Origin: Puniceicoccales bacterium Verruco_02
GTDB lineage: Bacteria > Verrucomicrobiota > Verrucomicrobiia > Opitutales > Oceanipulchritudinaceae
Direction: 5' to 3'
Assembly (NCBI GenBank): GCA_001604585.1
Contig: LVBW01000006.1
Coordinates: 1 to 50,034 of the forward strand
DNA length: 50,034 nucleotides
In this document: positions 3,639-23,238 of the stretch, one piece after another
Numbering within the stretch: position 1 is the first letter of the stretch
How the letters are laid out: the number at the start of each line of letters is the position of its first letter
The notes under the pieces: model-generated
The model's input: the letters and a program-made list of their open reading frames with translations, nothing else
The model's database searches: none
What the model was told of the DNA's origin: nothing
Program-made: the position numbers and the translations under genes

Positions 3639-3884
3639 CACCCTCCGGTCATCTGATGGGAATCGCTCGCGCGTATTGCCTTGAGTATCCGTCGTCATTT
3701 CGCAGCTCTGTAAGTCATCTGTGTTTATTGAACATCGGCCGTTTCCCGCATATCGCCTCTGCCCGATATAGTAGGGATTGCTTGCATCGGTTCTTGACGA
3801 ATCTGCCCATACTTGCGCAATTATCAGCAGTGCAGAGTTCGCGGAATACCCCCCGGTCCGCCCTCCATACCGCTATTGCTGCCC

Positions 3885-4670
3885 ATGCCCCAGCTCATCA
3901 ACCTGTGCAATGTCCCCCCTTGGGTCATTGCATCGAGCACGTTTAACGAAAACCCCGTGCAAATCGAGATTGACGGAGTGCGCGCAACAAATCGTTGCCT
4001 GTTCCGTAAGCTTGACCAAGAAGAAGATCAGCTCCGCAGAGGGGAGATTTTCAACGATTACATGAGTGTGCGCTTCAACCTGCACGAGTGGGAACATTAC
4101 AACAACCTAGCCCGCAGCAGCATTCGCAACAGCTACCTGCGCTTTTTGTCCGCATGGGGGCTGGATTCAAACACCGCCGAAGGAGCCGTGCTAAAGGGAT
4201 GGGTGGAGAGCCGCATCGGCATCCGCCCTACGTTCCACAAGGTGAAGCTGACCGCCGCACACAGCGACGAGGACTTTCTGTACGCTCACGACCGCATGAA
4301 GGGCAGTGCGCGCACAAACGCCATATATTCCCAGTTCGACCTGCTCTACGAGTTCTGCCAGTACGAGCTTTCGCGGCGCGGTCACTGGAAGCAGAGCATC
4401 AGTCTCTACCGTGGCACAAATGATGCCGAGGAGTATCAGGTAAAGGAACGAGGGCCGAAGAAGACCTTCTGTGTGCGCATGAACAACCTCTGCTCCTTCA
4501 CCTGCGATCGTGAAAAGGCCTGGGAGTTCGGCTCCACGGTTTGGAAGACCGAGGTGCCCCTATGCAAGATATTCTTCTTTAGCGGCCTATTGCCCGACAG
4601 CATCCTGCGCGGCGAGAGCGAGTTCATGGTCATTGGCGGCGACTACTGGGTGAAAGAGCTGCTTTACTGA
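3885..4670 (+). CDS. draT: NAD+-dinitrogen-reductase ADP-D-ribosyltransferase (DraT)
   Basis: DraT transfers ADP-ribose from NAD+ to one arginine of the nitrogenase Fe protein and so switches nitrogenase off when ammonium arrives or energy falls. The 261 residues are close to the proteobacterial length (about 275). The family N-terminus (NVPPWVIASSTFNENP, then a DGVRATNRCLF block) is clear. The R-S-E toxin-type transferase triad is visible: Arg176 in SLYRGT, Ser204 in LCSFT, and the ExE pair Glu244/Glu246 in GESEFMVIGG. The ATG at 3885 is preferred because conserved sequence begins there; the frame is open 24 codons further upstream. It directly precedes nifH on the same strand. Its partner draG is far away at 43818, whereas in proteobacteria the two genes are usually adjacent. 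Confidence 0.92.
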   Translation: MPQLINLCNVPPWVIASSTFNENPVQIEIDGVRATNRCLFRKLDQEEDQLRRGEIFNDYMSVRFNLHEWEHYNNLARSSIRNSYLRFLSAWGLDSNTAEGAVLKGWVESRIGIRPTFHKVKLTAAHSDEDFLYAHDRMKGSARTNAIYSQFDLLYEFCQYELSRRGHWKQSISLYRGTNDAEEYQVKERGPKKTFCVRMNNLCSFTCDREKAWEFGSTVWKTEVPLCKIFFFSGLLPDSILRGESEFMVIGGDYWVKELLY

Positions 4671-4779: not shown

Positions 4780-5760
<981 letters not shown>

Positions 5761-5784
5761 AGGGATTGCCATCCAACATCTTGT

Positions 5785-5834
5785 CCTTCCCTGAAGAGCG
5801 GCCCCTGCATCAGTCGCAGGGGCCGCTGGGAAGG
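5785..5834 (+). promoter_or_regulatory. Large mRNA hairpin between nifH and nifD
   Basis: AGCGGCCCCTGC (5797-5808) pairs perfectly with GCAGGGGCCGCT (5816-5827) around a 7-base loop, and CCTTCCC (5785-5791) pairs with GGGAAGG (5828-5834) as an outer stem. No T-run follows, so read-through into nifD is expected. Such hairpins at the nifH 3' end commonly stabilise a short nifH transcript or attenuate read-through, raising NifH over NifDK. A small second stem (CCTGC/GCAGG) lies at 5847-5863. Confidence 0.75.
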
Positions 5835-5908
5835 GTGGAGCGTGCCCCTGCAAAAATCGCAGGCGCAAAGCTGCGAACGACTTACAACCTTACATTACCA
5901 TTAGCACC

Positions 5909-7573
5909 ATGTCAGACGAAGCTACAGACAGCCCGCAGGCGCACGAAGGACTCGTCCCAAGCGCCGCTGAGGCCCGCGAGCAGATGCTCGAAATTTATCC
6001 TAAAAAGACGCGTCGCAAGCGCGAAAAGCAGATGCTTGTCAACGATCCCGGCTCTCCTGGCGAGATCGGGGCCAACAGCCGCACAGTCCCAGGCATCATC
6101 ACCCAGCGTGGCTGCTCCTATGCTGGCTGCAAGGGCGTGGTCATAGGCCCCATCTACGACATCCTGCACATCACCCACGGCCCCATAGGCTGCGGCTGGT
6201 ACAGCTGGCTGTCGCGCCGCAACATGACCCGCATCCGCAAGGCTGGCGAGACGAACTTCCTCCAGTACTCCATGAGCACCGACATGCAGGAGGAGCAGAT
6301 CGTGTTTGGCGGCGAGAAGAAGCTGGCCCTTGCCATTCAGGAAGCCTACGACGAGTTCCACCCCAAGGCCATAAGCATCTACGCGACCTGCCCCGTCGGC
6401 CTCATTGGAGACGACATCCACAAGGTCTGCCGCGAGATGAAGCAGAAGCTGGGCATAAACATCTTCGGCTTCTCCTGCGAGGGCTACAAGGGCGTGTCTC
6501 AGTCCGCCGGGCACCACATTGCCAACAACGGCGTGTTCAAGCACATGATAGGCTTGGACGACACTCCGGTGGAGGGTAAATACAAGATCAACATCCTAGG
6601 CGAGTACAACATCGGTGGCGACGCATGGGAAATTGACCGAATCCTGGCCCTTTGCGGGATCAAGATTATCGGTACTCTTTCTGGCGGCGTAAGCTACGAC
6701 GATATCACCAACTGCCACATGGCGGACCTGAACGTTGTCATGTGTCACCGCTCCATCAACTACATGGCCGAGATGATGGAAAAGAAGTTCGGCATACCGT
6801 GGTTCAAGGTGAACTTCATCGGCATCAACGGCACAAAGAAGAGCCTGCGCAAGATCGCCAAGTACTTCGGCGACAAGGAACTCATCGACCGCGTTGAAGA
6901 AGTCATAGCCAAGGAGATGAGCGAGGTGCGCCCGGTTGTCGAGGATGTGAAGACCCGCACAAGCGGCAAGACTGCGGCCCTTTTTGTCGGAGGTTCGCGC
7001 GCCCACCACTATCAGGACCTCTTCGAGGACATGGGAATGAAGGTGATAAGCGCAGGCTACGAGTTCGCCCACCGCGACGACTACGAAGGGCGCGACGTAC
7101 TGCCACACATCAAGATGGATGCCGACACCCGCAACATCGAGGAGCTGGAAGTGGAGCAGGACCCTGCACGCTTCAACCTCCGCGGCACCGCCGACCGTAA
7201 GGCAGCACTCCAGAGCGAAGAGTTCAGCTTCAGCGACTACGAGGGCATGATGCGCCAGATGGGCAAGGACACGCTCGTAATCGACGACATCTCGCACCAC
7301 GAGATGGAAAAGCTCATCGAGATCTACAAGCCCGACGTCATCGGCAGCGGCATCAAGGACAAATACATCATCGAGAAGATGGGCGTGCCCTGCAAACAGC
7401 TCCACAGCTACGACTACGGAGGCCCATACGCTGGCTTCAAGGGTGCGATCAACTTCTACAAAGAGATAGACCGCATGACCTCCACCAAGGTCTGGAAATA
7501 CATTCACGCCCCCTGGCACGACGCTGCCCCGGCCGCCGAGGCCGCAGCAGCGCCAGAACCAGTAAACGCCTAA
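5909..7573 (+). CDS. nifD: Nitrogenase molybdenum-iron protein alpha chain
   Basis: The alpha subunit of dinitrogenase, which holds FeMo-cofactor and half of each P-cluster. P-cluster cysteines are seen at Cys69 (QRGCSYAGC), Cys95 (GPIGCG) and Cys161 (TCPVGLIGDD). FeMo-cofactor ligands are Cys279 (VVMCHRSINY) and His499 (KQLHSYDYGGPY), and the substrate-site motif GHHIAN is at about 201-206. At 554 residues it is longer than the roughly 480-490 of Azotobacter-type NifD; extra sequence between about 395 and 455 matches the insertion known in clostridial or group III NifD. This supports a true Mo-nitrogenase. No clear ribosome site precedes the ATG. nifK follows after 25 bases. Confidence 0.97.
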   Translation: MSDEATDSPQAHEGLVPSAAEAREQMLEIYPKKTRRKREKQMLVNDPGSPGEIGANSRTVPGIITQRGCSYAGCKGVVIGPIYDILHITHGPIGCGWYSWLSRRNMTRIRKAGETNFLQYSMSTDMQEEQIVFGGEKKLALAIQEAYDEFHPKAISIYATCPVGLIGDDIHKVCREMKQKLGINIFGFSCEGYKGVSQSAGHHIANNGVFKHMIGLDDTPVEGKYKINILGEYNIGGDAWEIDRILALCGIKIIGTLSGGVSYDDITNCHMADLNVVMCHRSINYMAEMMEKKFGIPWFKVNFIGINGTKKSLRKIAKYFGDKELIDRVEEVIAKEMSEVRPVVEDVKTRTSGKTAALFVGGSRAHHYQDLFEDMGMKVISAGYEFAHRDDYEGRDVLPHIKMDADTRNIEELEVEQDPARFNLRGTADRKAALQSEEFSFSDYEGMMRQMGKDTLVIDDISHHEMEKLIEIYKPDVIGSGIKDKYIIEKMGVPCKQLHSYDYGGPYAGFKGAINFYKEIDRMTSTKVWKYIHAPWHDAAPAAEAAAAPEPVNA

Positions 7574-7598
7574 CACGCAACGCAGGAGACTACTTACA

Positions 7599-8975
7599 AT
7601 GCTTGATGGAACAACAGCAGAAATCCGCGAGCGTCAGGCTCTGCGGATAAACCCGGCAAAGACCTGCCAGCCCATAGGCGCCATGTATGCCGCCCTTGGC
7701 ATCAATGGTTGCATGCCGCACAGCCACGGCTCACAGGGTTGCTGCGCCTACCACCGCAGCCACCTGACCCGCCACTACAAGGAACCCGTAGCCGCCACCA
7801 CCAGCTCCTTCACTGAAGGCGCGTCCGTGTTCGGCGGCTTGGCCAACCTTCAGCAGGCCCTGGAAAACATCTTCACAATATACAAGCCGAAGATTGTGGC
7901 CGTGCACACGACCTGCCTTTCCGAGGTCATCGGCGACGACATACCGATGATCATCGAAAGGGCGCGCCGCGAGGGCAAGATCAAGCCCGATCAGCTTGTG
8001 ATGCACACCAACACGCCGAGCTTTGTCGGCAGCCACGTAACGGGTTTCTCCAACCAGTGCGCCTCCACGATCAAGTACTTCAGCGAATCCTCGGGCGAGA
8101 CGAAGAACGTCGTCAACCTCTTCCCCGGCTGGGTGGAGCCGGCCGACATGCGCGAAATCAAGCGTATGGCAAAGGAAATGGGCATCGAGTTCATCCTCTT
8201 CCCGGACACAAGCGGGGTGCTGGATACCGGACACACTGGCCACTACGAGATGTATCCCGCAGGCGGCACGACCCTTGAGCAGATCAAGGCAATGGGCGAC
8301 AGCTTCCAGACAATCGCCATGGGGCCTCTGGCCTCCAAGGCTGCTGCCGAGGAGCTTGAAAAGAAGTGCAACGTGCCTTCCAGACTGCTCGAATTGCCCA
8401 TCGGCCTTTCCAACACCGACGCATTCGTTAACGCCATGCGTCTTGCAGGGCAGGTGCCGGTACCGGCCAGCATCGAGGAAGAGCGCTCTCGCCTCATCGA
8501 CATGATGAGCGACATGGCTCAGTACATGCACGACAAGAAAGTGGCCATATTCGGCGACCCAGACCAGGTGACAGCACTCACCCAGTTCCTTGTCGAGATG
8601 GACATGAAGCCCGTCATCGCCGTCACCGGCACGCCCGGCAAGGCTTTCGAGGCAAAGATCAAGGAAATCTGTGCCGAGAAGTGCCCCGAGGTCGAGGCCC
8701 GCGCATACAGCGATGTGCACTTCCTGCACCAGTGGATAAAGAACAACCCTGTGGACCTATTGATAGGCAACGGGTTTGGCAAATTTGTGGCCAAGGCCGA
8801 GGGGAACATTCCCTTCGTGCGCTTCGGCTTCCCGATTATGGATCGCGTGGGCCACCGCGCGTTCTCCACCATCGGCTACACAGGCGCCATGCGCCTCATC
8901 GAGCAGATTACCAACGCCTTCTTCGACTACCGCGACCGCAACGATCCGGACGAGAAGATTGAGCTGGTTCTCTGA
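7599..8975 (+). CDS. nifK: Nitrogenase molybdenum-iron protein beta chain
   Basis: The beta subunit of dinitrogenase, completing the P-cluster. Cysteine ligands are visible at Cys23 (AKTCQPIGA), Cys48 (SQGCCAY) and Cys106 (TTCLSEVIGDD), and the VGSHVTGFSN segment carries the serine near the P-cluster. At 458 residues it lacks the roughly 50-residue N-terminal extension of Azotobacter NifK, as in clostridial and other group III proteins. An AGGAGA ribosome site precedes the ATG. It is transcribed with nifD, and a long hairpin-rich gap separates it from nifE. Confidence 0.97.
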   Translation: MLDGTTAEIRERQALRINPAKTCQPIGAMYAALGINGCMPHSHGSQGCCAYHRSHLTRHYKEPVAATTSSFTEGASVFGGLANLQQALENIFTIYKPKIVAVHTTCLSEVIGDDIPMIIERARREGKIKPDQLVMHTNTPSFVGSHVTGFSNQCASTIKYFSESSGETKNVVNLFPGWVEPADMREIKRMAKEMGIEFILFPDTSGVLDTGHTGHYEMYPAGGTTLEQIKAMGDSFQTIAMGPLASKAAAEELEKKCNVPSRLLELPIGLSNTDAFVNAMRLAGQVPVPASIEEERSRLIDMMSDMAQYMHDKKVAIFGDPDQVTALTQFLVEMDMKPVIAVTGTPGKAFEAKIKEICAEKCPEVEARAYSDVHFLHQWIKNNPVDLLIGNGFGKFVAKAEGNIPFVRFGFPIMDRVGHRAFSTIGYTGAMRLIEQITNAFFDYRDRNDPDEKIELVL

Positions 8976-9013
8976 GCGGTTTTGGCAAAACACGTTTCTC
9001 ATCACAATACTGT

Positions 9014-9066
9014 CCTCCGGGGCAGGGGCCGGTCCAAATCGGGGGGCCGGCCCGTTGCCCCGGAGG
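9014..9066 (+). promoter_or_regulatory. Long GC-rich hairpin between nifK and nifE
   Basis: CCTCCGGGGCA (9014-9024) pairs perfectly with TGCCCCGGAGG (9056-9066); inside, GGGCCGG (9026-9032) can pair with CCGGCCC (9047-9053). A second stem, GTGCCGG (9077-9083) with CCGGCAC (9101-9107), follows. Neither has a T-run. The pair probably tunes mRNA stability or partial read-through between structural and cofactor-assembly genes, as does the nifH-nifD hairpin. Confidence 0.7.
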
Positions 9067-9133
9067 GTTGGTATGGGTGCCGGAGGGTAGGGGTACTTTC
9101 CCGGCACTGCAACAAGGGCAGGAGTGCAAGGCG

Positions 9134-10510
9134 ATGAGCGAGGAAACCAAGAACATAAGCATACTTGAGGGGCGCAAGGGCCAGGTATGGCGCAAGGGCG
9201 AGGGCGGGGCATTTGTCTGCGATCGTCAGAGCCTTGCCGGTTCTGTGACACAGAGGGCCTGCGCCTTCTGTGGTTCGCGAGTGGTCCTGTATCCGATTGC
9301 AGACGCCCTGCACATAGTGCACGGCCCCATCGGTTGCGCGGCATACAACTGGGACATACGCGGTGCTCTTTCCAGCGGTCCGCAGATGCACCGCAACAGC
9401 TTTTCCACCGACGTATCGGAAAAGGAGATAATTTTCGGCGGAGAAAAGAAGCTCCGCGCAGCGCTCGACGAGCTGATTCCCGAGCTTAAGCCCAAGGCGG
9501 CCTTCGTGTATTCCACCTGCATCGTAGGCCTCATAGGCGACGATGTGGACGCCATTTGCAGGCAGACGAGCGCGAAGTACGGCATCCCGGTAATCCCGGT
9601 GGATAGTCCCGGCTTCAAGGGAACAAAGCGCCTCGGCTACCAGGCCGCATGCGACTCCATTTCAAAGCTCATAGGCACGGGCGACACCTCAAAGGTCGGC
9701 CCGCTCTCCATCAACCTGCTTGGCGAGTTCAACATCGCTGGCGAGGCATGGATGATCCGCGAGTATTTCGAGAAAATCGGCATCGAGGTGGTCGCCACCA
9801 TGACCGGCGACGGGCGCGTGGATGACATCCGCAGGGCACATGGGGCGAAGCTGAACCTAGTGCAGTGCTCCGGTTCGATGACCGCGCTTGCAAAGCTGAT
9901 GCAGGAAACGCACGGCATCCCCTTCAAGCGGGTGAGCTTTTTCGGCATGGAGGACACGGCCAAGGCGATTTACGAGGCCGCGGGCTTTTTCTGCGACGAG
10001 GTCGTGATGGAGCGCGCAAAGAACCTTGTGCGTGCGGAAATCGGCGAGGTTTTGCCGCAGCTGAAGGCTTACCGCCGGAAGCTGGCCGGAAAGAAGGCCG
10101 CCCTGTACGTGGGTGGTGCCTTCAAGGCCCTGAGCCTTGTCACGGCCCTGCGCGCCCTGGGGATGCGCACGGTGCTGGCCGGAACTCAGACGGGCAATGC
10201 GGACGACTACGCAGCCCTGCGCGACATATGCGACCCGGGCACGATCATCGTCGATGATTCCAACCCGCTGGAGCTGGCCAAGTTCGTAATGGAAAAGGAT
10301 GTTGACCTCTTTATCGGCGGGGTCAAGGAGCGCCCCATTGCCTTCAAGTTGGGCGTTGCCTTCTGCGATCACAACCACGAGCGCAAGATACCTCTGGCGG
10401 GCTTTGCCGGAATGCTCAACTTTGCCGAAGAGGTGGCCAGTTCGGTGCTCTCACCTGTCTGGAAATACGTCCCGCGCCGCTCGGGCTTGGGAATGGAGGG
10501 CGTGCGATGA
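9134..10510 (+). CDS. nifE: Nitrogenase FeMo-cofactor scaffold protein NifE
   Basis: NifE with NifN forms the scaffold on which the NifB-derived cluster is matured to FeMo-cofactor. It is homologous to NifD: conserved cysteines occur in RACAFCGSRVVLYP, HGPIGCAAYNWD and STCIVGLIGDDVD. The protein has 458 residues. The start at 9134 is chosen because AGGAG lies 9 bases upstream at 9120-9124; the frame is open for 22 further codons through the hairpin region. The stop overlaps the nifN start (ATGA), indicating translational coupling. Confidence 0.95.
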   Translation: MSEETKNISILEGRKGQVWRKGEGGAFVCDRQSLAGSVTQRACAFCGSRVVLYPIADALHIVHGPIGCAAYNWDIRGALSSGPQMHRNSFSTDVSEKEIIFGGEKKLRAALDELIPELKPKAAFVYSTCIVGLIGDDVDAICRQTSAKYGIPVIPVDSPGFKGTKRLGYQAACDSISKLIGTGDTSKVGPLSINLLGEFNIAGEAWMIREYFEKIGIEVVATMTGDGRVDDIRRAHGAKLNLVQCSGSMTALAKLMQETHGIPFKRVSFFGMEDTAKAIYEAAGFFCDEVVMERAKNLVRAEIGEVLPQLKAYRRKLAGKKAALYVGGAFKALSLVTALRALGMRTVLAGTQTGNADDYAALRDICDPGTIIVDDSNPLELAKFVMEKDVDLFIGGVKERPIAFKLGVAFCDHNHERKIPLAGFAGMLNFAEEVASSVLSPVWKYVPRRSGLGMEGVR

Positions 10511-11883
10511 GTGAGGATACTTCGATGCTCAACGAACCCCTGCACGCCACGCGCAATGCCTGCAAGGTCTGCGCCCCGCTTGGAGCCGCAATGGTGTTCA
10601 AGGGCGTCAGCGGCTGCCTTCCCTTCTTGCACGGCTCGCAGGGCTGCGCGACGTATATACGCCGGTACATGATCAGCCACTTTCGTGAGCCTGTGGACAT
10701 CGCCTCGTCAAGCTTCAGCGAAGAGGATGCCATATTCGGCGGCTCGCGCAACTTCAAGGCCGGTGTTGGCAACGCTATCCTTCAGTACGAGCCGGAACTT
10801 ATAGGCGTAGCTACGACATGTCTATCCGAGACCATCGGCGAGAACATGATCGCCATGATCCGCGACAGCCAGAAGGACGTGGAGATAACGAGCCGCACGC
10901 CACTTGTCCACGTATCAACACCGGCCTACAACGGCAGCCACAGCGAGGGCTTTCATGCCGCCGTGAAGGCAATGGTGACACACTTTGCGCATATAGACGC
11001 ACCCGCCCATGCTTCGCCAACGCTGAACATCATGCCCGGAATGGTGTCATGCGCAGACTTAAGGCATTTGCGCGAACTGGCGGGCCTTTTTGGAATGAAC
11101 GCGGTCCTCTTGCCCGACTATTCGGATACGCTCGAAGGGGCTAGCTGGGATGCATATCACCGCCTTTCGCCGGGCGGAACAAAGGTGGCTGAGATTCGTT
11201 CGATGGGGCGCTCCCTTGGCAGTGTGGAGCTTGGCCATACCCTGACAACGGGCGAGAGCGCGGGTGCATGGCTTGAGAAGAGCTTTGACGTGCCGAACTT
11301 CCCGCTGGGCCTGCCCATGGGGCTTCGCTTCTGCGACCGGCTGATGGGTGCTCTGGCCGCGATTTCCGGCAGGGCTACGCCGCAGAGTCTCTTGGCTGAG
11401 AGGGGCCGCCTGCTCGATTCCTACGTCGATGCGCACAAATACCTTTCCGGCGTAAAGGCCGCTGTCACCGGCGAGCCGGACCTTGTCATCGCAATGGCGG
11501 GCTTTCTCTCCGAGATTGGCATTCGGCCCGTCATCTGCGCAACAGGCACCAAGCCTAGGCACTTCAAAGAGCTGCTGGCTGGCGAGATGGAGGGCGGCAT
11601 AGAGGATGTCAGCATCATTCCCGGCAGCGATCACCACAGGCTGGAGGCCGCCGTGCGCGAGGCAAAGCCAGACCTGATTATTGGCACGAGCAAGGCCATG
11701 CCTCTTGCACGCGCCCTCGGGATACCCCTTCTTCGCAGTGGTTTCCCGATTCACGACCGCTTTGGCGCGCAGAGGGAGCTAACTCTCGGCTACCGGGGTA
11801 CACAGGCCCTGTTCGACCGCATCGTCAACGCCTTGCTGGAGCACCGGCAGGAGTCCAACCCAATTGGTTATTCATACCTTTAA
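10507..11883 (+). CDS. nifN: Nitrogenase FeMo-cofactor scaffold protein NifN
   Basis: The NifK-like half of the NifEN scaffold. NifK-like motifs include NACKVCAPLGA, the HGSQGCATYIRRY segment and TTCLSETIGEN, with the family end block LLRSGFPIHDRFG before the C-terminus. The length is 458 residues. The start overlaps the nifE stop by four bases and nifB begins 7 bases after its stop, so nifENB form a tightly coupled unit. Confidence 0.94.
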   Translation: MSEDTSMLNEPLHATRNACKVCAPLGAAMVFKGVSGCLPFLHGSQGCATYIRRYMISHFREPVDIASSSFSEEDAIFGGSRNFKAGVGNAILQYEPELIGVATTCLSETIGENMIAMIRDSQKDVEITSRTPLVHVSTPAYNGSHSEGFHAAVKAMVTHFAHIDAPAHASPTLNIMPGMVSCADLRHLRELAGLFGMNAVLLPDYSDTLEGASWDAYHRLSPGGTKVAEIRSMGRSLGSVELGHTLTTGESAGAWLEKSFDVPNFPLGLPMGLRFCDRLMGALAAISGRATPQSLLAERGRLLDSYVDAHKYLSGVKAAVTGEPDLVIAMAGFLSEIGIRPVICATGTKPRHFKELLAGEMEGGIEDVSIIPGSDHHRLEAAVREAKPDLIIGTSKAMPLARALGIPLLRSGFPIHDRFGAQRELTLGYRGTQALFDRIVNALLEHRQESNPIGYSYL

Positions 11884-11890
11884 TAACACC

Positions 11891-13207
11891 ATGGAAAGCA
11901 CCGCAACAGACAAGCCGCGTCCGGGTAACATCAATCTGGACAACCATCCCTGCTTTAACCGCGATGTCTGCCACAAGGTGGGCCGCGTGCACCTTCCCGT
12001 AGCCCCTCAGTGCAACATTCAGTGCAACTACTGCAACCGCAAATATGACTGCGTGAACGAGAGCCGCCCCGGCGTTACATCCAACATACTTTCGCCCGGT
12101 CAGGCACTGGCCTATCTCGAAAGCATCTTCGATACGCGCAACGACATAACAGTGGTGGGCATAGCAGGCCCCGGAGACCCGATGGCGAACGCCGAGGCCA
12201 CGATGGAGACCTTGCGCCTTGTCCGCGAAAAGTACCCGGAAATCATCCTCTGCCTTTCCACGAACGGCCTTGGCCTTAGCGAGGAGATTATTGCGGAGCT
12301 GGCCCGGCTTCAGGTAAGCCATGTGACAATCACAATCAACGCCGTTGACCCGGCAATTGCCGCCAAGGTGTATGCTTGGGCGCGCCACGACAAGCGCATA
12401 CACAGGGGCATCGAGGCGGGCAAACTGATGGTGGAAAAGCAGCTCTGGGCGCTCAAGACCATCAAGAGATATGGCATGATCGCCAAGGTGAACTCCATCA
12501 TCCTGCCTGGCATAAACGACAAGCACCTGCCCGTGCTGGCAAAGGCCGTCGCAGAACTGGGCGCGGACCTTATGAACTGCATACCGCTGTTGCCGGTAGC
12601 GGACACCGCTTTCGAGAACCTTGTCGAGCCCGACCACAAGATGCGCTTCCGCGTCCGTCTGGAATGTGGCGAGCACGTCAACCAGATGACGCACTGTGCA
12701 CGCTGTCGCGCCGACGCGATTGGCAAGCTGAGCGAGCCCATGGGCGAGGAGGCCCACGAACTGCTGCGCCGCTGCGCTTCCCTGCCGCTCAATCCGCAGC
12801 AGGAGCGTCCATATGTGGCCGTGGCAACGCGCGAGGGCCTACTTGTCAACCTGCACCTTGGCGAGGCCAAAGAGTTCATGATCTTCGGCCCCGACGCGGA
12901 AGACCCCGGCAGCTATGTCGAGATTGGCACCCGCAAGGCGCCTCTGCCCGGCGGCCGCGACAACCGTTGGGAGGAGCTGGCAGATGTGCTCCACGACTGC
13001 CGCAGCATTCTGGTCAACGTGGCCGGACCCTCGCCCCGCGAGGTGCTTGCGCGCAAGGGTATCTCGGTAGTCGAGATGGAGGGCATGATAGAGGTCGGTC
13101 TTGAGCACGTTTATCGCAACGAGGCCCTGCCACCGACTATCAGCACCGCTGGACGTGGCTGTGGCAAGGGCGTCAGCTGTGGCGGCGACGGCACTGGCTG
13201 CGGCTAG
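11891..13207 (+). CDS. nifB: FeMo-cofactor biosynthesis radical SAM protein NifB
   Basis: NifB uses S-adenosylmethionine chemistry to fuse two [4Fe-4S] clusters and insert carbide, giving NifB-co. The radical SAM motif is CNIQCNYC (Cys41, Cys45, Cys48), followed by GIAGPGDP; an HxxxC-type N-terminal segment (NHPCFNRDVCHKVGRVHLPV) is typical. The C-terminal portion (about 305-425) resembles the NifX/NafY-like domain found fused to many NifBs. The last residues form a Gly/Cys-rich tail (RGCGKGVSCGGDGTGCG). The length is 438 residues; the frame is open 9 codons earlier inside nifN, but ATG at 11891 fits the conserved start better. Confidence 0.96.
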   Translation: MESTATDKPRPGNINLDNHPCFNRDVCHKVGRVHLPVAPQCNIQCNYCNRKYDCVNESRPGVTSNILSPGQALAYLESIFDTRNDITVVGIAGPGDPMANAEATMETLRLVREKYPEIILCLSTNGLGLSEEIIAELARLQVSHVTITINAVDPAIAAKVYAWARHDKRIHRGIEAGKLMVEKQLWALKTIKRYGMIAKVNSIILPGINDKHLPVLAKAVAELGADLMNCIPLLPVADTAFENLVEPDHKMRFRVRLECGEHVNQMTHCARCRADAIGKLSEPMGEEAHELLRRCASLPLNPQQERPYVAVATREGLLVNLHLGEAKEFMIFGPDAEDPGSYVEIGTRKAPLPGGRDNRWEELADVLHDCRSILVNVAGPSPREVLARKGISVVEMEGMIEVGLEHVYRNEALPPTISTAGRGCGKGVSCGGDGTGCG

Positions 13208-13253
13208 AAACCATTCACAGGCAAACAATTACAACACTCCTAACAAGATATAC

Positions 13254-13559
13254 ATGAAGGCACCAACTCATCATCTCTTCCTTTGCGGAAGCATCCGCGC
13301 CAATGGCGAACCCAACGGCGTGTGCAAGAACAAGGACTCTCTGGCCCTGCTCTCCTACCTCCAGAGCGAGGTCAAAGACCGTATGTTGGACGGGGTGGAG
13401 GTGGCCATGACGGGCTGCATGAACATGTGCGCCCACGGCCCCATCCTCATCGACTACCCGGCAGGGCATTTCTTCGGCAAGATTACCGAGAGCAAGATCG
13501 ACGACATTCTCGACGCCATCGAAGAGGGCGAAGTGGCAAGCCAGCATTTGATATCCTGA
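13254..13559 (+). CDS. Thioredoxin-like [2Fe-2S] ferredoxin
   Basis: A 101-residue cytoplasmic protein with the Cys pattern of thioredoxin-fold (Shethna-type) [2Fe-2S] ferredoxins: LFLCGSIRANGEPNGVCKN near residues 8-26 and a second pair in TGCMNMCAHGP near residues 54-64, then a basic-acidic helix. It lies 46 bases after nifB and 72 before mop in the same direction. Similar ferredoxins near nif genes are proposed to protect nitrogenase or feed electrons to cofactor assembly; its role here is inferred from position only. The frame is open far upstream inside nifB, but the ferredoxin pattern begins at 13254. Confidence 0.85.
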   Translation: MKAPTHHLFLCGSIRANGEPNGVCKNKDSLALLSYLQSEVKDRMLDGVEVAMTGCMNMCAHGPILIDYPAGHFFGKITESKIDDILDAIEEGEVASQHLIS

Positions 13560-13631: not shown

Positions 13632-13841
13632 ATGAAAATAAGTGCCAGAAACGTCCTTGGCGGGACGATCAAGGAAATACGGACCGGAATGATCAACACG
13701 GAGATCGTTCTCGTTCTTGAAAGTGGAGGCGAACTGGTCTCCATCATCACAAAAGATTCGGCAGATGCGCTTAACCTAGTGGTCGGAGGTAAGGCGTATG
13801 CCGTGATCAAGGCGAGCAACGTAATGATCGCCGTGGACTAG
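13632..13841 (+). CDS. mop: Molbindin (Mop/TOBE-domain molybdate-binding protein)
   Basis: A 69-residue single-domain protein matching the Mop (TOBE) fold: it begins [18 protein letters not shown], has the repeated strand [19 protein letters not shown] and ends [18 protein letters not shown]. Molbindins assemble into hexamers that store molybdate in the cytoplasm. In clostridia, mop genes sit among nif genes in the same way. It lies 11 bases before nifV. Together with modABC it suggests dedicated molybdenum supply for FeMo-cofactor. Confidence 0.93.
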
Positions 13842-13852
13842 AAGGCACCGAC

Positions 13853-14992
13853 ATGGGAAAAGGGATGGCCAACCTCATCGACACCACGCTTCGCGATGGC
13901 GAACAGGCGGCAGGAGTCAGTTTTTCGCGCGGCGAGAAGCTGGCCATAGCACGTCTGTTGGCCGCTTTGGGCATGGAGGAGATAGAGGTTGGCATCCCAG
14001 TCATGGGAGAGGAGGAGCTGGAAGATATCCGCGCAGTGGTTGAGGCAGCTGGCGGGATGAAGGTGCTCACTTGGGGCAGGGCGCTGGAGGGCGACGTGGT
14101 GCAGGCAGCGCGCAGCGGCGCGGCTGGCTTTCACTTCTCGATACCTGCCAGCGATATACACCTTGCCGCGTGGCGGCGTTCCCGGACCTGGGCCTTTGAG
14201 CAGATGCAGAGAGTGGCGGATGCGGCCAGAGCCTCGTTCAGCTATTTCAGCATAGGCTTTCAGGACGCCTCGCGGGCGGAGACTGGTTTTTTGCGGGATC
14301 TGGCTCGCTCGGCGCTGGAGTGCGGGGCGGCGCGCATACGCATAGCCGACACCGTTGGTTGCCTCAACCCCCTGCGCACTGCGGAACTTGTGCGCCGCGT
14401 GCAGAGCGCGGCTCCGGTTCTGCCTCTGGAATTTCACGGGCACAACGACCTTGGCATGGCTACGGCCAACAGTGTTGCGGCGATAATGGCGGGGGCGGAC
14501 AGCGCGAGCGTTACCGTCAACGGTCTTGGCGAAAGGGCGGGCAATGCCGCGCTCGAAGAGGTGCTGATGGCGCTCAAGGTGTCCTGCAACATGGAGTTGC
14601 CATACAAGACGGCTCTGTTGCCAGAGCTTTGCGAACTGGTGGCACGCACTTCGGGCCGCTCGCTGCGCGAGGATAAGCCCGTCGTCGGCCTTTCCGCACA
14701 CAGGCACGAATCGGGCATACATTGCCGGGGCCTTGGCGCAGACAGTCGCACTTACGAGGCCTACGACCCGGCAGAGACGGGCCGTAGCCGCGAGGCGGAC
14801 ATCATCGGCATTCACTGCGGAAGGGACAGCCTCGCGCGGGCGATGGCGGGTTATGGGCTGGACTGTGATGCGAAGCTGCTTGGCGAAATGCTGCCAAAGG
14901 TTCGCGTCATGGCCCGCAGGCTTAAAAGGCCGCTCGGCAGGGACGAGCTTTCTGAAATCCGGGACGCCTGTTCAGGAGACTGTAAATCATAA
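13853..14992 (+). CDS. nifV: Homocitrate synthase NifV
   Basis: NifV condenses acetyl-CoA and 2-oxoglutarate to R-homocitrate, the organic part of FeMo-cofactor. It is a 379-residue TIM-barrel enzyme of the LeuA/HMGL family: [17 protein letters not shown] at the start carries the catalytic Arg and metal Asp, the metal-binding [12 protein letters not shown] motif lies near residue 195, and [16 protein letters not shown] near residue 222 is characteristic. A second ATG lies four codons inside (13865). It fits between mop and an unrecognised gene 12 bases downstream. Confidence 0.93.
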
Positions 14993-15004: not shown

Positions 15005-15505
15005 ATGGGCTTCATTCTATACAAGGTTGAACAGACTGGCGAAGGCACGCGCTACACAATGCAGAACCGCATATCCGCGGCAGGGCAGGGGGGCGTGATG
15101 GCCCGCTACCTCAAGAGCTGCGCAGGCGGCCAGTACTGCCCGTTAAAGTGGCAGCTTTCCGGCAAGTCCCTCGTCGCTGCCTTTGCGCCGGATGTTGACG
15201 CCGAAGCCCATGCCGTGGTCATGGACATGATGCCGGAGCGCCTCGCCGGGGCCTCGCTTTGCCTTGTCCGCTCGCTGGCCGGGTATTCCGACGTGGACGA
15301 GAGCGACCTTGTGATAGTGATGCGGGAGTTGTTCATGACATCCAGCCCGGTTAAGGGCGTGGACCCGCGTCAGAGCTTCATTGCCGGGGACGATTCCCGC
15401 ACGCCCGACCTTGTCGAATCCATTGGCATAAGCGGCGGCCTCGAAAGGGGCACTTATCGCTGGTGCGCACCCAAGATGAACATCGGCGCAGCCATCTGTC
15501 GCTGA
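15005..15505 (+). CDS. Unrecognised protein between nifV and the flavodoxin
   Basis: A 166-residue protein I do not recognise. It is predicted soluble, with no signal peptide or membrane segment, and contains five cysteines (39, 45, 86, 154, 165), with a Cys-x5-Cys near the middle (LKSCAGGQYCPLKW). The centre alternates strands and helices and is followed by DLVIVMRELFM, while the C-terminus is RWCAPKMNIGAAICR. It begins 12 bases after nifV and shares strand and codon use with the nif genes, so it is very likely cotranscribed. A role in cofactor assembly or nitrogenase protection is possible but not shown. It does not match NifX, NifW, NifZ, NifQ or NifT as I know them. Confidence 0.8.
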   Translation: MGFILYKVEQTGEGTRYTMQNRISAAGQGGVMARYLKSCAGGQYCPLKWQLSGKSLVAAFAPDVDAEAHAVVMDMMPERLAGASLCLVRSLAGYSDVDESDLVIVMRELFMTSSPVKGVDPRQSFIAGDDSRTPDLVESIGISGGLERGTYRWCAPKMNIGAAICR

Positions 15506-15608: not shown

Positions 15609-16073
15609 ATGAGCGACAAAGTTCTTACCATTATCTACGGAACCGAGACCGGAAACGCCAAGACCCTTGCCGGGCAGGTGGCAAAGCGCGCCGAGAAGAA
15701 CGGCGTTGCCGCGACAAGCTGCAACATGGCCGAATGCGATGCGGCAGGCCTTGCCGGAATCGCAGGCCCAGTCCTTTTCATCGTATCGACTTGGGATGAC
15801 GGCCTGCCGCCCGCATCGGCAAGGCCATATTTCAAGGCTCTGGCGGGGCTGTCCAGCCTTCCGGGCCTGAGCTACACGGTGCTAGCCCTCGGCGATTCCG
15901 ATTACGAGCAGTTCTGCAAGGCTGGCGCTGACTTGGATGCAATGCTAGCGAAACTGGAGGCCAAGAGCTTCATGCCGCTTTCCAAATTGGGTGCGGATTT
16001 CCAAGTCAGCTACATGGGCTGGGCAAAGAACTTCTGGGGCGCTCTGGCGGGCATCTACGGCATAAGCAAGTAG
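15609..16073 (+). CDS. nifF: Flavodoxin (NifF-like)
   Basis: A 154-residue FMN-binding electron carrier. The N-terminal phosphate loop YGTETGNAKTLA (about residues 10-21), the STWDDGLPP loop near residue 60 and ALGDSDYEQFCKAG near residue 97 are flavodoxin signatures. It is flanked by nif genes and lies 69 bases before nifJ, so it likely carries electrons from pyruvate oxidation to NifH. The sequence alone cannot separate a dedicated NifF from a general flavodoxin; the symbol rests on context. Confidence 0.9.
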   Translation: MSDKVLTIIYGTETGNAKTLAGQVAKRAEKNGVAATSCNMAECDAAGLAGIAGPVLFIVSTWDDGLPPASARPYFKALAGLSSLPGLSYTVLALGDSDYEQFCKAGADLDAMLAKLEAKSFMPLSKLGADFQVSYMGWAKNFWGALAGIYGISK

Positions 16074-16142
16074 GCTTTGCCCCGCTCCCGGCCCGTCGGC
16101 CGGCCGCGTCTTACACACTCAACACGAGGAGACATTTTCACG

Positions 16143-19100
16143 ATGATAGCGAGACTTGAACAGGACTGGAAAACGCTGGACGCCAACGAGGCGGCCGCAT
16201 CTGTGGCTTACCGCATGAGCGAGGTCATAGCCATTTACCCGATAACGCCCTCCACGCCCATGGCCGAGAGCTGCGACGAGTGGTCGTCCAAGCAGATGCC
16301 CAACCTCTGGGGGCAGGTTCCGGAGGTTGTGCAGATGCAGAGCGAGGGCGGTGTGGCGGGTGCCATCCACGGCGTTGCAATGGGGGGCGCGCTAACGACG
16401 ACGTTCACCGCGTCTCAGGGCCTCTTGCTGATGATTCCCAACCTGTACAAGCTCGCTGGCGAACTTACGCCAATTGTCGTGCACGTCACGGCGCGCGCGC
16501 TGGCAACACACGCGCTATCCATATTCGGAGACCATTCGGACGTCATGGCCTGCCGCCAGACGGGGGTGGCCATGTTGGTGTCCAACAATGTGCAGGAGGC
16601 GCACGACATGTCCGCCATTGCTCATGCAGCCACACTGACGAGTCGTCTGCCATTCATGCACTTCTTCGATGGCTTTCGCACTTCGCACGAAATCAACAAG
16701 ATACAGATGATTTCCGATGATGTTCTGAACGAGCTATTGGATCGCGAAGCTCTGGCGGAATTCCACATGAGGGGCCTTAGTCCCGACAAGCCATCGCTGC
16801 GCGGCACGGCCCAGAATCCCGACACCTACTTTCAGGGGCGCGAGGTGGTCAATCCATACTACAAGCGCTGCGTCGGTATCGTGGAGGAGCTGATGGAAAA
16901 GTTCGGCGCTGTCACGGGCCGCAACTACAAGCCTTTTGAATACGAGGGCCACCCAGAGGCCGAGAGGGTGATTGTAATCATGGGCAGCGGAGCTGAGACT
17001 GCCGCTACAACAGCCCTTCACCTTGCCGAAAAAGGCGAGAAGGTGGGAGTTCTCAAGGTACGTCTTTACCGCCCCTTCGCCACCCGCCGCTTCCTCGACG
17101 CTCTGCCCGCCACGGTGAAGAAGATTGCCGTGCTGGACAGGACCAAGGAGCCTGGCTCCATTGGCGAACCCCTGTACCTCGACATCGTTCTTGCCCTTTC
17201 CAAGGCGCGGAGCTGCTCCAAGGCGAGCGGGCCGGCCGATGTGTCGATAGTGGGCGGACGCTACGGCCTCGGCTCCAAGGAGTTCAGCCCCGGCATGGTC
17301 AAGGCGGTGTTCGACATGCTTTGCGAGGAGGAGCCTCAGGACCATTTTGTCGTCGGGATAAGGGACGACGTGATGGGGCGTTCGCTCGAATGGAACGAAT
17401 CCTTCCGCCTGCCGATGCCCGGTGTGCGCGCGGCGCTCTTCTTCGGGCTTGGTGCAGACGGCACCGTTGGTGCCAATAAGAACACGATCAAGATAATCGG
17501 CGAGCAGACCCCGCTCTTTGCTCAGGGTTACTTCGTGTATGACTCGAAGAAGTCTGGTAGCCTCACCGTGTCGCATCTGCGCTTTGGTCCTTCGGAAATC
17601 CGCGCCCCGTATCTGATTGCAAAGGCCAACTTTGTCGGCTGTCACCAGCCAGCCTTCCTCGGGCGTTACCCGGCCATGCTGGACAGCCTCCAGCCCGGGG
17701 GCACCCTGCTTGTGAACTATCCCTGCGAATGTGGCGAACTCTGGGGCAGGCTGCCCGCAAGCGTGCGCAAGGCCATCCGCGAGAAGAACATCAAGCTTTT
17801 CCACATCGACGCTGGCAGCGTGGCAAAGGCGCAGGGCCTTGGCGCACACATCAACGTCATAATGCAGGCCGCGTTCTTTGCCCTGAGCGAGGTTCTGCCT
17901 CGCGAGGAGGCCATCGAGCAGATAATGAAGGCCATCAAGAAGACCTACGGCAAGAAGGGCGAGAGTGTCGTAAAGAAGAATTGCGACGCGATCGACGCTT
18001 CGCTCGCCGCACTTGGAGAGGTGACTATACCTGCAAGCGACGAGGGCCTGACCTTCGCAGCCGAGGTTCTCGCCCGCAGCTTCTGCACGAGCGACAAGTT
18101 CATAAACGAGGTGACACTGCCACTTATTCAGGGCAAGGGCGAGGAGCTGCCTGTGTCCGCCTTCCCGATAGACGGCGTGTGGCCGACAGGCACTGCAAAA
18201 TACGAGAAGCGCGAGATTGCCTCTACTATTCCCATATGGAATCCAGAGGCCTGCACTCAGTGCAACCAGTGCGCCACAGTCTGCCCGCACGCAGTCATTC
18301 GCCCCCTTTTTGTGGCGGAGGACAAGCTCGAAGGCGCGCCCGGGAGCTTCCGCAGCGTGGCCTTCAAGGGGCCGGGCGCGAAGGCGGGAGAAAAATACCT
18401 GCTCCAGGTGTCCCCGGCGGACTGCACTGGCTGCCGCCTGTGCGTTGCCGCCTGTCCGAGTGGAGAGGCCAAGGATGCTTCGGCCCGCGCCCTGACGATG
18501 ACTCCAGTGACAAGCGAGCTTATGGCGGCCGAGTCCGACAACTGGGACTTTTTCAACACCTTGCCGCAGCCCTCGGTAGAGCGCCTTGCGCCCACTCCGC
18601 GCCTGTTGCCCTTCCGCCAGCCGCTCTTCGAGTTCTCGGGAGCCTGCTCGGGCTGTGGACAGACGCCCTACGTGCGCACGCTGACCCAGCTCTTTGGCGA
18701 TCGCCTGCTCATGGCCAACGCCACGGGTTGCTCCTCCATCTACGGAGGCAATCTACCGACAACCCCTTACACTAGCGACCAGAACGGGCGCGGCCCGGCA
18801 TGGGCAAATTCGCTCTTCGAGGACAATGCGGAATTTGGCTTCGGCCTGATGCTGGCCGCAGAGCATCGCCGTAGCACGGCCCTGCACTGCCTGAAGGCGC
18901 TGCGCGATAAGTTGCCCGTGTCCCTTGTGAAAGACATCTCCGAGGCAAGGCAGGATAGCGAAGTGGACTTTGCCGCCCAGCGCGAGAGGGTGGGCGCGCT
19001 CAAGGAGCTTATTGCCAACATGGATGCCCCCGAGGCCGCGCTGCTTCGCCTGCACGCCGATTACCTCGTAAACAAGAGCGTATGGGTGATGGGGGGCGAC

Positions 19101-19751
19101 GGCTGGGCCTACGACATAGGCTTTGGCGGCCTAGACCACGTGCTGGCCAGCGGGCGCAACATCAACATTCTAGTGCTCGACACCGAGGTGTATTCCAACA
19201 CCGGAGGCCAGTCCAGCAAGGCCACGCCCACGGGGGCCGTTGCCAAGTTCGCCGCTGCTGGCAAGGCTCTGGGCAAGAAAGACCTTGCCATGATTGCCAT
19301 GAGCTACGGCCACTGCTACGTGGCGCAGATCGCGATGGGGGCCAATCCGCGTCAGGCAATCGAGGCCCTTCGCGAGGCAGAGAGCTACGAAGGCCCTTCG
19401 CTCGTCATTGGCTACGGCCCATGCATTGCGCATGGCATAGACCTTTCCGACAGCATCAAGCGTCAGAAGCTGGCCCTTGAGACCGGCTACTGGACTTTGT
19501 TCCGCTTTGACCCTCGCCGCGTGGCCAAGGGCGAGCCGGGCATGGTGCTAGACAGCGCAGAGCCGAGCAAGGAGGTGGCGGAGTTCATGGCGGGCGAGAA
19601 CCGCTTTCGCATCCTTCGCGCCAGCAATCCGGAGCGTGCCGATGCCCTGACTGCGATGGCACAGGAAAGGGCTGGCGCCAAGTACCGTAAATACGAGGCC
19701 ATGACCCGGGCCGAAAGCGCCGCTGGCGAAGAGGACGAGGGCTGGGGTTGA
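16143..19751 (+). CDS. nifJ: Pyruvate:ferredoxin (flavodoxin) oxidoreductase
   Basis: A single-chain enzyme of 1202 residues that oxidises pyruvate to acetyl-CoA and CO2 and reduces ferredoxin or flavodoxin, supplying low-potential electrons to nitrogenase. The order is: the N-terminal pyrimidine-binding and transketolase-like domains (IAIYPITPSTPMAE at the start), the CoA-related domain, two ferredoxin clusters (CTQCNQCATVCP near 703-714 and CTGCRLCVAACP near 761-772), the proximal-cluster CSGCGQTPY near 835, and the thiamine-diphosphate GDGWAYDIG motif near 985 with SNTGGQSSKATP. The start at 16143 follows a GAGGAGA ribosome site; the frame is open 22 codons earlier. Confidence 0.96.
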   Translation: MIARLEQDWKTLDANEAAASVAYRMSEVIAIYPITPSTPMAESCDEWSSKQMPNLWGQVPEVVQMQSEGGVAGAIHGVAMGGALTTTFTASQGLLLMIPNLYKLAGELTPIVVHVTARALATHALSIFGDHSDVMACRQTGVAMLVSNNVQEAHDMSAIAHAATLTSRLPFMHFFDGFRTSHEINKIQMISDDVLNELLDREALAEFHMRGLSPDKPSLRGTAQNPDTYFQGREVVNPYYKRCVGIVEELMEKFGAVTGRNYKPFEYEGHPEAERVIVIMGSGAETAATTALHLAEKGEKVGVLKVRLYRPFATRRFLDALPATVKKIAVLDRTKEPGSIGEPLYLDIVLALSKARSCSKASGPADVSIVGGRYGLGSKEFSPGMVKAVFDMLCEEEPQDHFVVGIRDDVMGRSLEWNESFRLPMPGVRAALFFGLGADGTVGANKNTIKIIGEQTPLFAQGYFVYDSKKSGSLTVSHLRFGPSEIRAPYLIAKANFVGCHQPAFLGRYPAMLDSLQPGGTLLVNYPCECGELWGRLPASVRKAIREKNIKLFHIDAGSVAKAQGLGAHINVIMQAAFFALSEVLPREEAIEQIMKAIKKTYGKKGESVVKKNCDAIDASLAALGEVTIPASDEGLTFAAEVLARSFCTSDKFINEVTLPLIQGKGEELPVSAFPIDGVWPTGTAKYEKREIASTIPIWNPEACTQCNQCATVCPHAVIRPLFVAEDKLEGAPGSFRSVAFKGPGAKAGEKYLLQVSPADCTGCRLCVAACPSGEAKDASARALTMTPVTSELMAAESDNWDFFNTLPQPSVERLAPTPRLLPFRQPLFEFSGACSGCGQTPYVRTLTQLFGDRLLMANATGCSSIYGGNLPTTPYTSDQNGRGPAWANSLFEDNAEFGFGLMLAAEHRRSTALHCLKALRDKLPVSLVKDISEARQDSEVDFAAQRERVGALKELIANMDAPEAALLRLHADYLVNKSVWVMGGDGWAYDIGFGGLDHVLASGRNINILVLDTEVYSNTGGQSSKATPTGAVAKFAAAGKALGKKDLAMIAMSYGHCYVAQIAMGANPRQAIEALREAESYEGPSLVIGYGPCIAHGIDLSDSIKRQKLALETGYWTLFRFDPRRVAKGEPGMVLDSAEPSKEVAEFMAGENRFRILRASNPERADALTAMAQERAGAKYRKYEAMTRAESAAGEEDEGWG

Positions 19752-20017: not shown

Positions 20018-21622
20018 ATGAACGACAAAGGCCCATTCTGTTTCTACTCAAGGGAGGGTCCGACGCCCGAACAGCTTGAGGCTCCGCCAGAGACGCTTCG
20101 ATGTCGAAGCGTGCAGGAACTGGCTGTGATTTTCGAGATATGCAGGACCATCGAGAAGTCCTTCGACCTGCACGACATTGCACAGCCCATTCTCAAGAAC
20201 ATGCAGAACCTCATGGGTTTGCAGAGCGGGGCGATTACGCTCGTCAACACCGAGAGTGGAGACATGGCCATTGATGAGGCCATCGGTATGCCAAGGGATG
20301 GTGCGGAGGCATATCTGAAACTCATTCATCAGACTTCGGCCAAGGTTATTAAGAGCGGCTCTTCGCAGGTTGTAAATGTGAGGGCCTTGGCAGAGCAGAG
20401 GGAAGAAGTGTTCAGTGCGTCGGAATCTCCCGGCAAATACACTGTTCTGCTCTGTGTGCCCATACGCAGCGAGAGCGAGATTATCGGCACAATAAGCGTT
20501 GAAAGGGCTGGCACTTCCCGTGTTTCTCAGGAGTCCGACCTGCGCCTTGTATCTATGATTGCCTCACTCATAGGACAGGCGGCTAGGGTTCGCCTTCAGG
20601 CTTGGAGCCAGATTTCGCTGCTCAAGGAGGAGAACAACCGTCTTCAGGAGCAGGTGGCGCGTAGCGGGAGGCTCACCGACATGGTGGGCACTTCCAGTGG
20701 GATACGGAACGTTTACTATCTTGTCGAACAGGTGGCGGACAGCCGCACGACGGTGCTCTTGCGCGGCGAGAGCGGCACTGGCAAGGAGCGCGTGGCAAGG
20801 GCCTTGCATCAGAATAGTTCGCGCAAGGACGGGCCGTTTGTGACGTTCAACTGCGCAGCCTTGCCCGATTCCATCATCGAGAGCGAGCTGTTCGGCCACG
20901 AGAAAGGCGCCTTCACCGGTGCGCACGCCATGCGCAAGGGGCGCTTCGAGGCTGCTGACAAGGGGACGATATTCCTTGACGAGATTGGCGACATTTCCCC
21001 GGCTGTGCAGTCCAAGCTCTTGCGCGTGCTTCAGGAGCGCGAGATAGAGCGCGTGGGCAGCCATACGCCAATTCGCACCGATGTGCGCGTAATTGCCGCG
21101 ACAAGCCGCGACCTTGAGGGCATGATTGCGGAAAACATCTTCCGTGCCGACCTTTACTATCGCCTGAATGTGTTTCCCATCTACCTGCCGCCACTGCGGG
21201 AGCGCAAGTGCGACATATTGCTGCTGGCAGATCACTTTATCGAGAAATATGCCAAGGCCAACGGTAGCAAGGTTCGGCGTATTTCCTCGGCAGCAATAGA
21301 TTTACTGGTGAGCTATCACTGGCCGGGGAATGTGCGCGAGCTGGAGAACTGCATCGAAAGGGGCATCCTGCTGGCCAAGGGCGAGTCGATACAGGCTCAG
21401 CATCTGCCGCCAACGCTTCAGAAAAAGAACGCAAAGGAGCAGGAGGTGAAAGCCACGCTAGAGGATGCCCTTGGCGCTCTGGAGCGAGAGATGATCGTCG
21501 ATGCGTTGAAGGAGTCCGGCAGTAATATGGCCGAGGCTGCACGGCGTCTTGGCATGACAGAGCGAAAGATGGGCCTTCGGATTACCAAGTACGGCATAGA
21601 TGTGAAGCGTTTTCGCAAATAG
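20018..21622 (+). CDS. nifA: Nif-specific sigma-54 activator NifA
   Basis: A 534-residue bacterial enhancer-binding protein. An N-terminal GAF domain (about 30-195) is followed by a coiled linker, a AAA+ domain (about 220-455) with Walker A GESGTGKE and the sigma-54-contacting GAFTGA loop, and a Fis-type helix-turn-helix ending [21 protein letters not shown], close to NifA. The CX4C cysteine motif between AAA+ and DNA-binding domains of oxygen-sensitive rhizobial NifA is absent, and no nifL is adjacent. GAF-mediated control by PII or by a small molecule is therefore a reasonable inference. The gene lies 266 bases after nifJ and just before modABC. Confidence 0.9.
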
Positions 21623-21640: not shown

Positions 21641-21717
21641 AATCTACGCAGTTTTCCCGCAGAGGCATGTTCGCTGCTTTCTCTTGCTTCGTTCGGTCGT
21701 CAACAAGACCAATACCG

Positions 21718-22527: not shown

Positions 22528-22545
22528 GCAAGGGCAATTATCTAC

Positions 22546-23238
22546 ATGAATGCAAACGAGGCAGAGGCTGCTTTCGAGGCCGTGAGGAACACGCTGGCAT
22601 GGGCAGGATTGTCCATGCTCATCGTGATGATTCCGGGCTGCCTTTTAGCCTACCATCTTGCTAGAAGTGATTTCTTTGGTAAGCGCGTGATTTCGGCCCT
22701 TGTCAGTCTGCCCCTTGTGATGCCTCCTACTGCCGCAGGGTATCTATTATTGCGGTTGTTCGCTGATAATGGCCCGCTTGGAAGGAAGACTCTTGGCGTA
22801 GATCTTGGCATATTACTCGACTGGAAGGGTGTCGTATTGGCCTGCTCGCTTATGTCGATGCCGCTTGTGGTGCGCACGGCAAGGTTGAGCTTCGAGGGCG
22901 TGAATCCGCGCTTCGAAGCAATGTCTCGGACTCTTGGCCGTGGACGTATGCGCACTTTCTGCACTGTTACCCTGCCTCTTGCGGGGCGTGGCCTGTTGGC
23001 GGCCCTGATACTTGGGTTTACGCGGGCGGTTGGGGAGTTTGGTGCCTCGGTGGTGCTGGCTGGTAACATTCCTGGCAGAACGCAGACCCTGGCCAGTGCT
23101 ATTTACAGCGCGCAGCAGGCCGGGCGTCAGTTTCAGGCGGATATTCTTCTATGTGTGGCGCTATTCTTGGGCTTTGTCGCAATCTATGCCTCGGAGCGGC
23201 TTTCGCTGGCGCTTGGGAACGGAGGGCGTCGTGGTTGA
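22546..23238 (+). CDS. modB: Molybdate ABC transporter permease
   Basis: A 230-residue inner-membrane permease with about five or six hydrophobic segments. The ABC-permease EAA-like loop reads [45 protein letters not shown] in its segments, typical of ModB/CysT. The gene follows modA directly, and its 3' end overlaps the GTG start of modC by 8 bases. Confidence 0.93.

What the first reader, a model, noticed from the sequence alone, without database searches (positions are those of the whole stretch)
15005..15505. Unrecognised five-cysteine protein inside the nif operon
A 166-residue soluble protein lies between nifV and the flavodoxin with 12 bases to nifV. It matches no Nif accessory family known to me. 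Such a position suggests a part in cofactor assembly, electron transfer or protection.
Basis: partly seen in the sequence, partly recalled or inferred. Interest (0 to 1): 0.6.

Follow-up and report, generated by a model that had tools for sequence, protein, structure and literature searches.

The report
Orphan nif-cluster protein beside nifV
A small protein of unknown type sits directly after the homocitrate synthase gene in the nitrogen-fixation cluster of one order of bacteria (Opitutales); it is a real, selected gene found only in nitrogen-fixing members, and most likely helps assemble nitrogenase, although its job has not been shown.

Summary
The gene is real: 166 codons at 15005-15505 (+), 12 bases after nifV, 103 bases before a flavodoxin gene, inside draT-nifHDKENB-Fd-mop-nifV-ORFX-fld-nifJ-nifA-mod. 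It matches nothing in Pfam, NCBIfam or PDB, by sequence or by predicted fold. I found 20 homologues, all in Opitutales (Verrucomicrobiota) genomes that carry nif genes: 21 of 26 nif+ genomes including this one, none detected in nif- genomes or in 24 nif+ genomes elsewhere in the phylum sample. In 20 of 21 it lies immediately downstream of nifV, often with a 4-base overlap; fld and nifJ are variable neighbours. Purifying selection is clear (dN/dS 0.07-0.24). The 'five-cysteine' clue is wrong: no cysteine is conserved across the family, so Fe-S or thiol ligation is not its shared function. Best reading: a lineage-specific, non-enzymatic nitrogenase maturation factor working around NifV/FeMo-cofactor assembly, in a cluster without detected NifZ or separate NifX/NafY (NifW undetected but uncontrolled). 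The function is inference; the nif-specific orphan family is shown. Five nif+ genomes lack it, so it is helpful rather than universally essential.

The parts
15005..15505 (+). ORFX: 166-aa orphan protein (the finding)
13853..14992 (+). nifV, homocitrate synthase; constant upstream neighbour of ORFX (20 of 21 members)
13632..13841 (+). mop/molbindin-like TOBE protein (Mo-pterin binding domain), optional neighbour
13251..13559 (+). thioredoxin-like [2Fe-2S] ferredoxin (NF041612, below its cut-off)
11864..13207 (+). nifB (radical SAM + C-terminal NifX-like domain, the only PF02579 domain found in this genome)
15609..16073 (+). flavodoxin; downstream neighbour in the closer clade only
16077..19751 (+). 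nifJ, pyruvate:flavodoxin oxidoreductase; downstream in most of the closer clade only
4783..11883 (+). nifH, nifD, nifK, nifE, nifN (nifH start probably about 4906)
3813..4670 (+). draT (dinitrogenase reductase ADP-ribosyltransferase)
20018..21622 (+). nifA-like sigma-54 activator (GAF-AAA-HTH)

Best explanation
ORFX is a nif gene of the Opitutales: a soluble, mostly beta, single-domain protein, encoded directly after NifV and often with overlapping reading frames. It most likely acts as a non-catalytic nitrogenase maturation factor: it binds an immature partner (NifDK, NifEN, or NifV itself with its homocitrate) and stabilises it while P-cluster or FeMo-cofactor is completed. It would thus do by analogy what NifW/NifZ or NifX/NafY do elsewhere. 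Shown: gene, family, selection, restriction to nif genomes, adjacency to nifV, no known fold found, no conserved Cys. Inferred: co-transcription, the binding role and the partner.
For: Only nif+ genomes carry it: 21 of 26 nif+ against none detected in 346 nif- Opitutales (naive hypergeometric P 6e-30, genomes not independent). 20 of 21 directly follow nifV on the same strand, 7 of the 17 measured with a 4-base overlap. fld/nifJ are missing from the divergent clusters, so nifV is the constant partner. Purifying selection. Divergence tracks NifB, NifE, NifK, NifV (Spearman 0.75-0.86; NifD 0.43), which fits co-inheritance. No NifZ over cut-off in this genome (genome G166 rang as a control), no NifX/NafY apart from the NifB domain. 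In proteobacterial clusters the slot right after nifV holds nifW, an assembly factor (role from PMC6016461). Invariant residues are G, W, E and hydrophobics without a conserved Cys, which suits a binding protein.
Against: No interaction, expression or mutant data. Five nif+ genomes lack it, three of them close relatives with otherwise similar clusters (L076, L077, L078). It evolves much faster than the Nif proteins (mean distance 0.63-0.68 against 0.48 for NifV and 0.23-0.35 for others). hhalign shows no kinship with NifW/Z/X/Y/Q/T/M. Absence of NifW was not controlled. In G631 it lies away from nifV.
Confidence: 0.42

Rival explanations
1. A dedicated partner of NifV: it stabilises or regulates homocitrate synthase, or hands homocitrate to NifEN.
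For: nifV is the only constant neighbour; 4-base overlaps suggest translational coupling. In the divergent clade it appears to be the last nif gene, after nifV.
Against: nifV occurs without it in 5 nif+ Opitutales and outside the order. One member is unlinked to nifV.
Confidence: 0.22
2. A small regulator or inhibitor of nitrogenase activity or nif expression, e.g. a nitrogen or energy status sensor that works beside DraT/NifA.
For: draT lies in or near most of these clusters; fast evolution and patchy loss suit a modulator.
Against: No DNA-binding, PII-like or nucleotide-binding signature found; its place follows nifV, not nifA or draT.
Confidence: 0.12
3. Electron transfer or oxygen protection: a redox partner for the neighbouring flavodoxin/NifJ or the 2Fe-2S ferredoxin, or a protective protein.
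For: Lies next to fld and nifJ in the closer clade; five Cys in this sequence.
Against: No conserved Cys; fld and nifJ are absent beside it in the divergent clade.
Confidence: 0.1
4. A hitchhiker: a selected protein with a role outside N2 fixation that only happens to be kept in the nif cluster.
For: No function known; absent from 5 nif+ genomes.
Against: Never detected in nif- genomes, 20 of 21 at the same slot, also in clusters whose other flanks differ.
Confidence: 0.06

Closest known systems
NifW (nitrogenase-stabilizing/protective protein, PF03206)
   Same: Occupies the slot directly downstream of nifV in many proteobacterial clusters; small soluble accessory protein.
   Different: No sequence or profile similarity; the NifW proteins compared are 85-126 aa, ORFX members are 148-192 aa and predicted mostly beta.
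NifZ (PF04319)
   Same: Small accessory factor of MoFe maturation (PMC6484116, PMC6016461); proposed functional analogue only.
   Different: No Pfam match or hhalign similarity.
NifX/NafY/NifY (PF02579, FeMo-co carriers and apo-MoFe binders)
   Same: Proposed functional analogue; similar size to NifX.
   Different: No PF02579 match, no hhalign similarity.
Cystatin-like fold
   Same: Best weak structural overlap of the window model (3l0r_A, Z 4.8, rmsd 3.9, 100 residues).
   Different: Below a meaningful level, and not on top for the second, more confident model (best Z 4.1, unrelated chains); no sequence link.

Membership tests
NifW (PF03206) | Match to the Pfam model / profile similarity | tested here: not met
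   No hit for 21 members at E<=1; hhalign probability 0.1% while the positive control between ORFX subclades gives 99.6% (NifW profile of five sequences)
NifW (PF03206) | Gene directly after nifV | tested here: met
   20 of 21
NifW (PF03206) | Binds immature MoFe protein | not testable with these tools
   needs co-purification
NifZ (PF04319) | Match to the Pfam model / profile similarity | tested here: not met
NifX/NafY (PF02579) | Match to the Pfam model / profile similarity | tested here: not met
Cys-ligated Fe-S or thiol redox protein | Conserved cysteines | tested here: not met
   No Cys column conserved across 21 members
Cystatin-like fold | Convincing structural match | tested here: inconclusive
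   Z at most 4.8; Foldseek E at best 0.26 for any chain
nif-associated gene (broad sense) | Occurs only in nif+ genomes and in nif clusters | tested here: met
   one member (G631) lies outside a nif cluster
nif-associated gene (broad sense) | Needed for N2 fixation | not testable with these tools
   needs a deletion mutant

The most novel reading that the evidence does not exclude
ORFX is a new nitrogenase assembly factor with a fold not seen before, which evolved in Opitutales and replaces the NifW/NifZ/NafY-type helpers, or is a dedicated homocitrate-handling partner of NifV, a kind of protein not known so far.
Probability: 0.3. Interest if true: 0.75.

Novelty: new variant of a known kind. 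Interest (0 to 1): 0.5.

Why it matters
Which accessory proteins a working nitrogenase needs is an open question and limits its transfer to other hosts. A lineage whose cluster shows no detected NifZ or separate NifX/NafY, yet keeps its own orphan protein beside nifV, offers a compact alternative set to test. The family is defined here well enough (21 members, profile, fairly confident model) to test directly by deletion or pull-down in cultured hosts such as Coraliomargarita or Cerasicoccus.

Tried and rejected
Five-cysteine metal site: no conserved Cys. Known Nif accessory families: Pfam and NCBIfam on all members, hhalign against NifW/Z/X-Y/Q/T/M, nothing. The 156-159-aa hypothetical that follows a [2Fe-2S] ferredoxin in Paraburkholderia and Methylococcus nif plasmids (L095, L096) looked like a possible counterpart by position but looks helical, TPR-like, and has no similarity. 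PDB by sequence: only a chance hit at E 0.47. Fold search with two models (pLDDT 81.6 and 86.2): no Foldseek match under E 0.26, no Z of 5 or more; this does not prove a new fold. Viral contigs and plasmids: no homologue. Sigma-54 sites: not above chance in the window. No + strand promoter-like or terminator-like site by simple scan between nifV and fld, which fits one transcript but proves nothing. Literature: no paper found on this protein; PMC5673642 compares verrucomicrobial nif operons but, in the passages read, names only the usual genes.

Full report
Observation. The ORF is there as described: 15005-15505 on the + strand, 166 aa, ATG, five Cys, 12 bases after nifV (ends 14992) and 103 bases before the flavodoxin gene. 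The surrounding cluster is draT, nifH, nifD, nifK, nifE, nifN, nifB, a [2Fe-2S] ferredoxin, mop, nifV, ORFX, fld, nifJ, a nifA-like activator, and modA/B/C-like genes, all on one strand.

No known family. Neither the window protein nor any of its relatives matches Pfam or NCBIfam; the only listed hits are chance-level, E 0.12-0.15 in single members. The family profile finds nothing in the PDB sequences (one chance hit at E 0.47).

Relatives. BLAST of the single protein finds it in 14 of 372 genomes of the order, this one included; record titles name the relatives as Verrucomicrobiota, e.g. Coraliomargarita, Cerasicoccus, Puniceicoccaceae, Opitutales, so the window comes from an Opitutales verrucomicrobium. 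A profile of 13 rows finds 7 more among nif+ genomes that BLAST had missed, so 21 members in all, down to 17-24% identity to the window. hhalign of the two subclades against each other gives 99.6% probability, so the divergent members are homologues.

Link to nitrogen fixation. 26 of the 372 genomes have nifD/nifE matches; 21 of these have ORFX; no nif- genome had a BLAST hit. The nif- genomes of the order were searched with the single protein, but with the profile only where they fall in the phylum sample. In that sample of 387 genomes the 21-row profile hits 6 genomes, all nif+ Opitutales, while 24 nif+ genomes of other orders and classes have no hit; ten of those clusters were read and show no such gene after nifV where nifV was found. 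Plasmids and viral contigs have none. One pattern scan of about 85,000 species genomes returned only Verrucomicrobiota, but it used one motif and would miss divergent forms.

Position. In 20 of 21 members ORFX is the next gene after nifV on the same strand; measured gaps are mostly -4 to +18 bases, with seven 4-base overlaps, and 75 in two sister genomes. In the closer clade the order nifB-Fd-(mop)-nifV-ORFX-fld-(nifJ)-draT is nearly fixed. In the divergent clade fld and nifJ are gone from the neighbourhood and ORFX appears to be the last nif gene. So nifV, not an electron-transfer gene, is the constant context. In G631 ORFX lies near rpoB on a contig without nifV; that genome is a fragmented assembly. 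Five nif+ genomes lack it: G445 and G619 have nifV followed by fld with no room for it, G441 has nifV followed by draT, and G157 and G185 (divergent clade) show no hit.

Selection and conservation. Close pairs give dN/dS 0.07, 0.12, 0.19, 0.19 and 0.24. Invariant in all 21: M1, G30, W49, G93, E138, G161; nearly invariant F3, Y6, G27, A33, L109, G144, G145; in the closer clade also W153 and the motif P-K-M-[DN]-I-G. No Cys column is conserved: C39 and C86 are shared only with L025, C45 with none, C154 with four others, C165 with nine. So Cys ligation cannot be the shared function of the family; a private role in this species is not excluded.

Structure. AlphaFold2 with nine rows gives mean pLDDT 81.6, pTM 0.79 for the window protein and 86.2, 0.81 for L028, with nearly the same order of elements: a beta hairpin, a helix, strand-helix-strand, then a long beta hairpin and further strands. 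Foldseek against the PDB finds nothing better than E 0.26; VIA-align gives at most Z 4.8 (cystatin) for one model and 4.1 for the other. A weak match does not show that the fold is new.

What it may do. This genome has no NifZ over the cut-off, in a search that found NifZ in genome G166, and its only NifX-like domain is the tail of NifB. NifW gave no hit, but nothing rang in the controls, so that absence is unproven. In Rahnella, Pantoea, Paraburkholderia, Methylococcus and Mesorhizobium the gene right after nifV is nifW. NifW and NifZ are assembly factors that bind immature MoFe protein (PMC6016461), and their loss abolishes diazotrophic growth in a cyanobacterium (PMC6428710). ORFX is not homologous to them at any sensitivity tried. 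I therefore favour an analogous maturation factor (0.42), next a NifV partner (0.22). The lack of conserved cysteines and the binding-protein-like conservation are compatible with both; neither has been tested.

Limits. Co-occurrence counts are not independent across related genomes, and the hypergeometric P (6e-30) ignores that. Several genomes are incomplete MAGs. The ORFX tree is poorly resolved, so congruence with nif genes rests on distance correlation only, which any co-inherited gene would show.

Noticed in passing
L102:10012-10404 (-) and L104:18285-18677 (+): In two nif+ verrucomicrobial genomes outside Opitutales nifV is followed by a short NifU-like domain protein and then a similar 130-aa unmatched protein (FTNEIRYN.AGMA.EKLVMG), another possible nif-linked orphan.
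   Followed up: no
L095:20464-20943, L096:17017-17487: A TPR-like hypothetical protein follows a thioredoxin-like [2Fe-2S] ferredoxin in Paraburkholderia and Methylococcus nif plasmids; not related to ORFX.
   Followed up: partly
window 3813-24343; genomes G013, G014: Two other genomes of the same genus have no nifD match, so the nif cluster is patchy within the genus.
   Followed up: partly
L083:7992-8567 (-): In G631 ORFX lies near rpoB, away from nifV (nifV is on another contig), yet is kept; true relocation or misassembly.
   Followed up: partly
window 13632-13841 and 21667-24343: A mop (molbindin-like) gene between ferredoxin and nifV, and modABC-like genes downstream: molybdenum handling is built into the cluster; mop is present in some relatives and absent in others.
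   Followed up: partly
L076, L077, L078: Three close nif clusters lack ORFX although the rest is similar; a natural comparison set for its function.
   Followed up: partly
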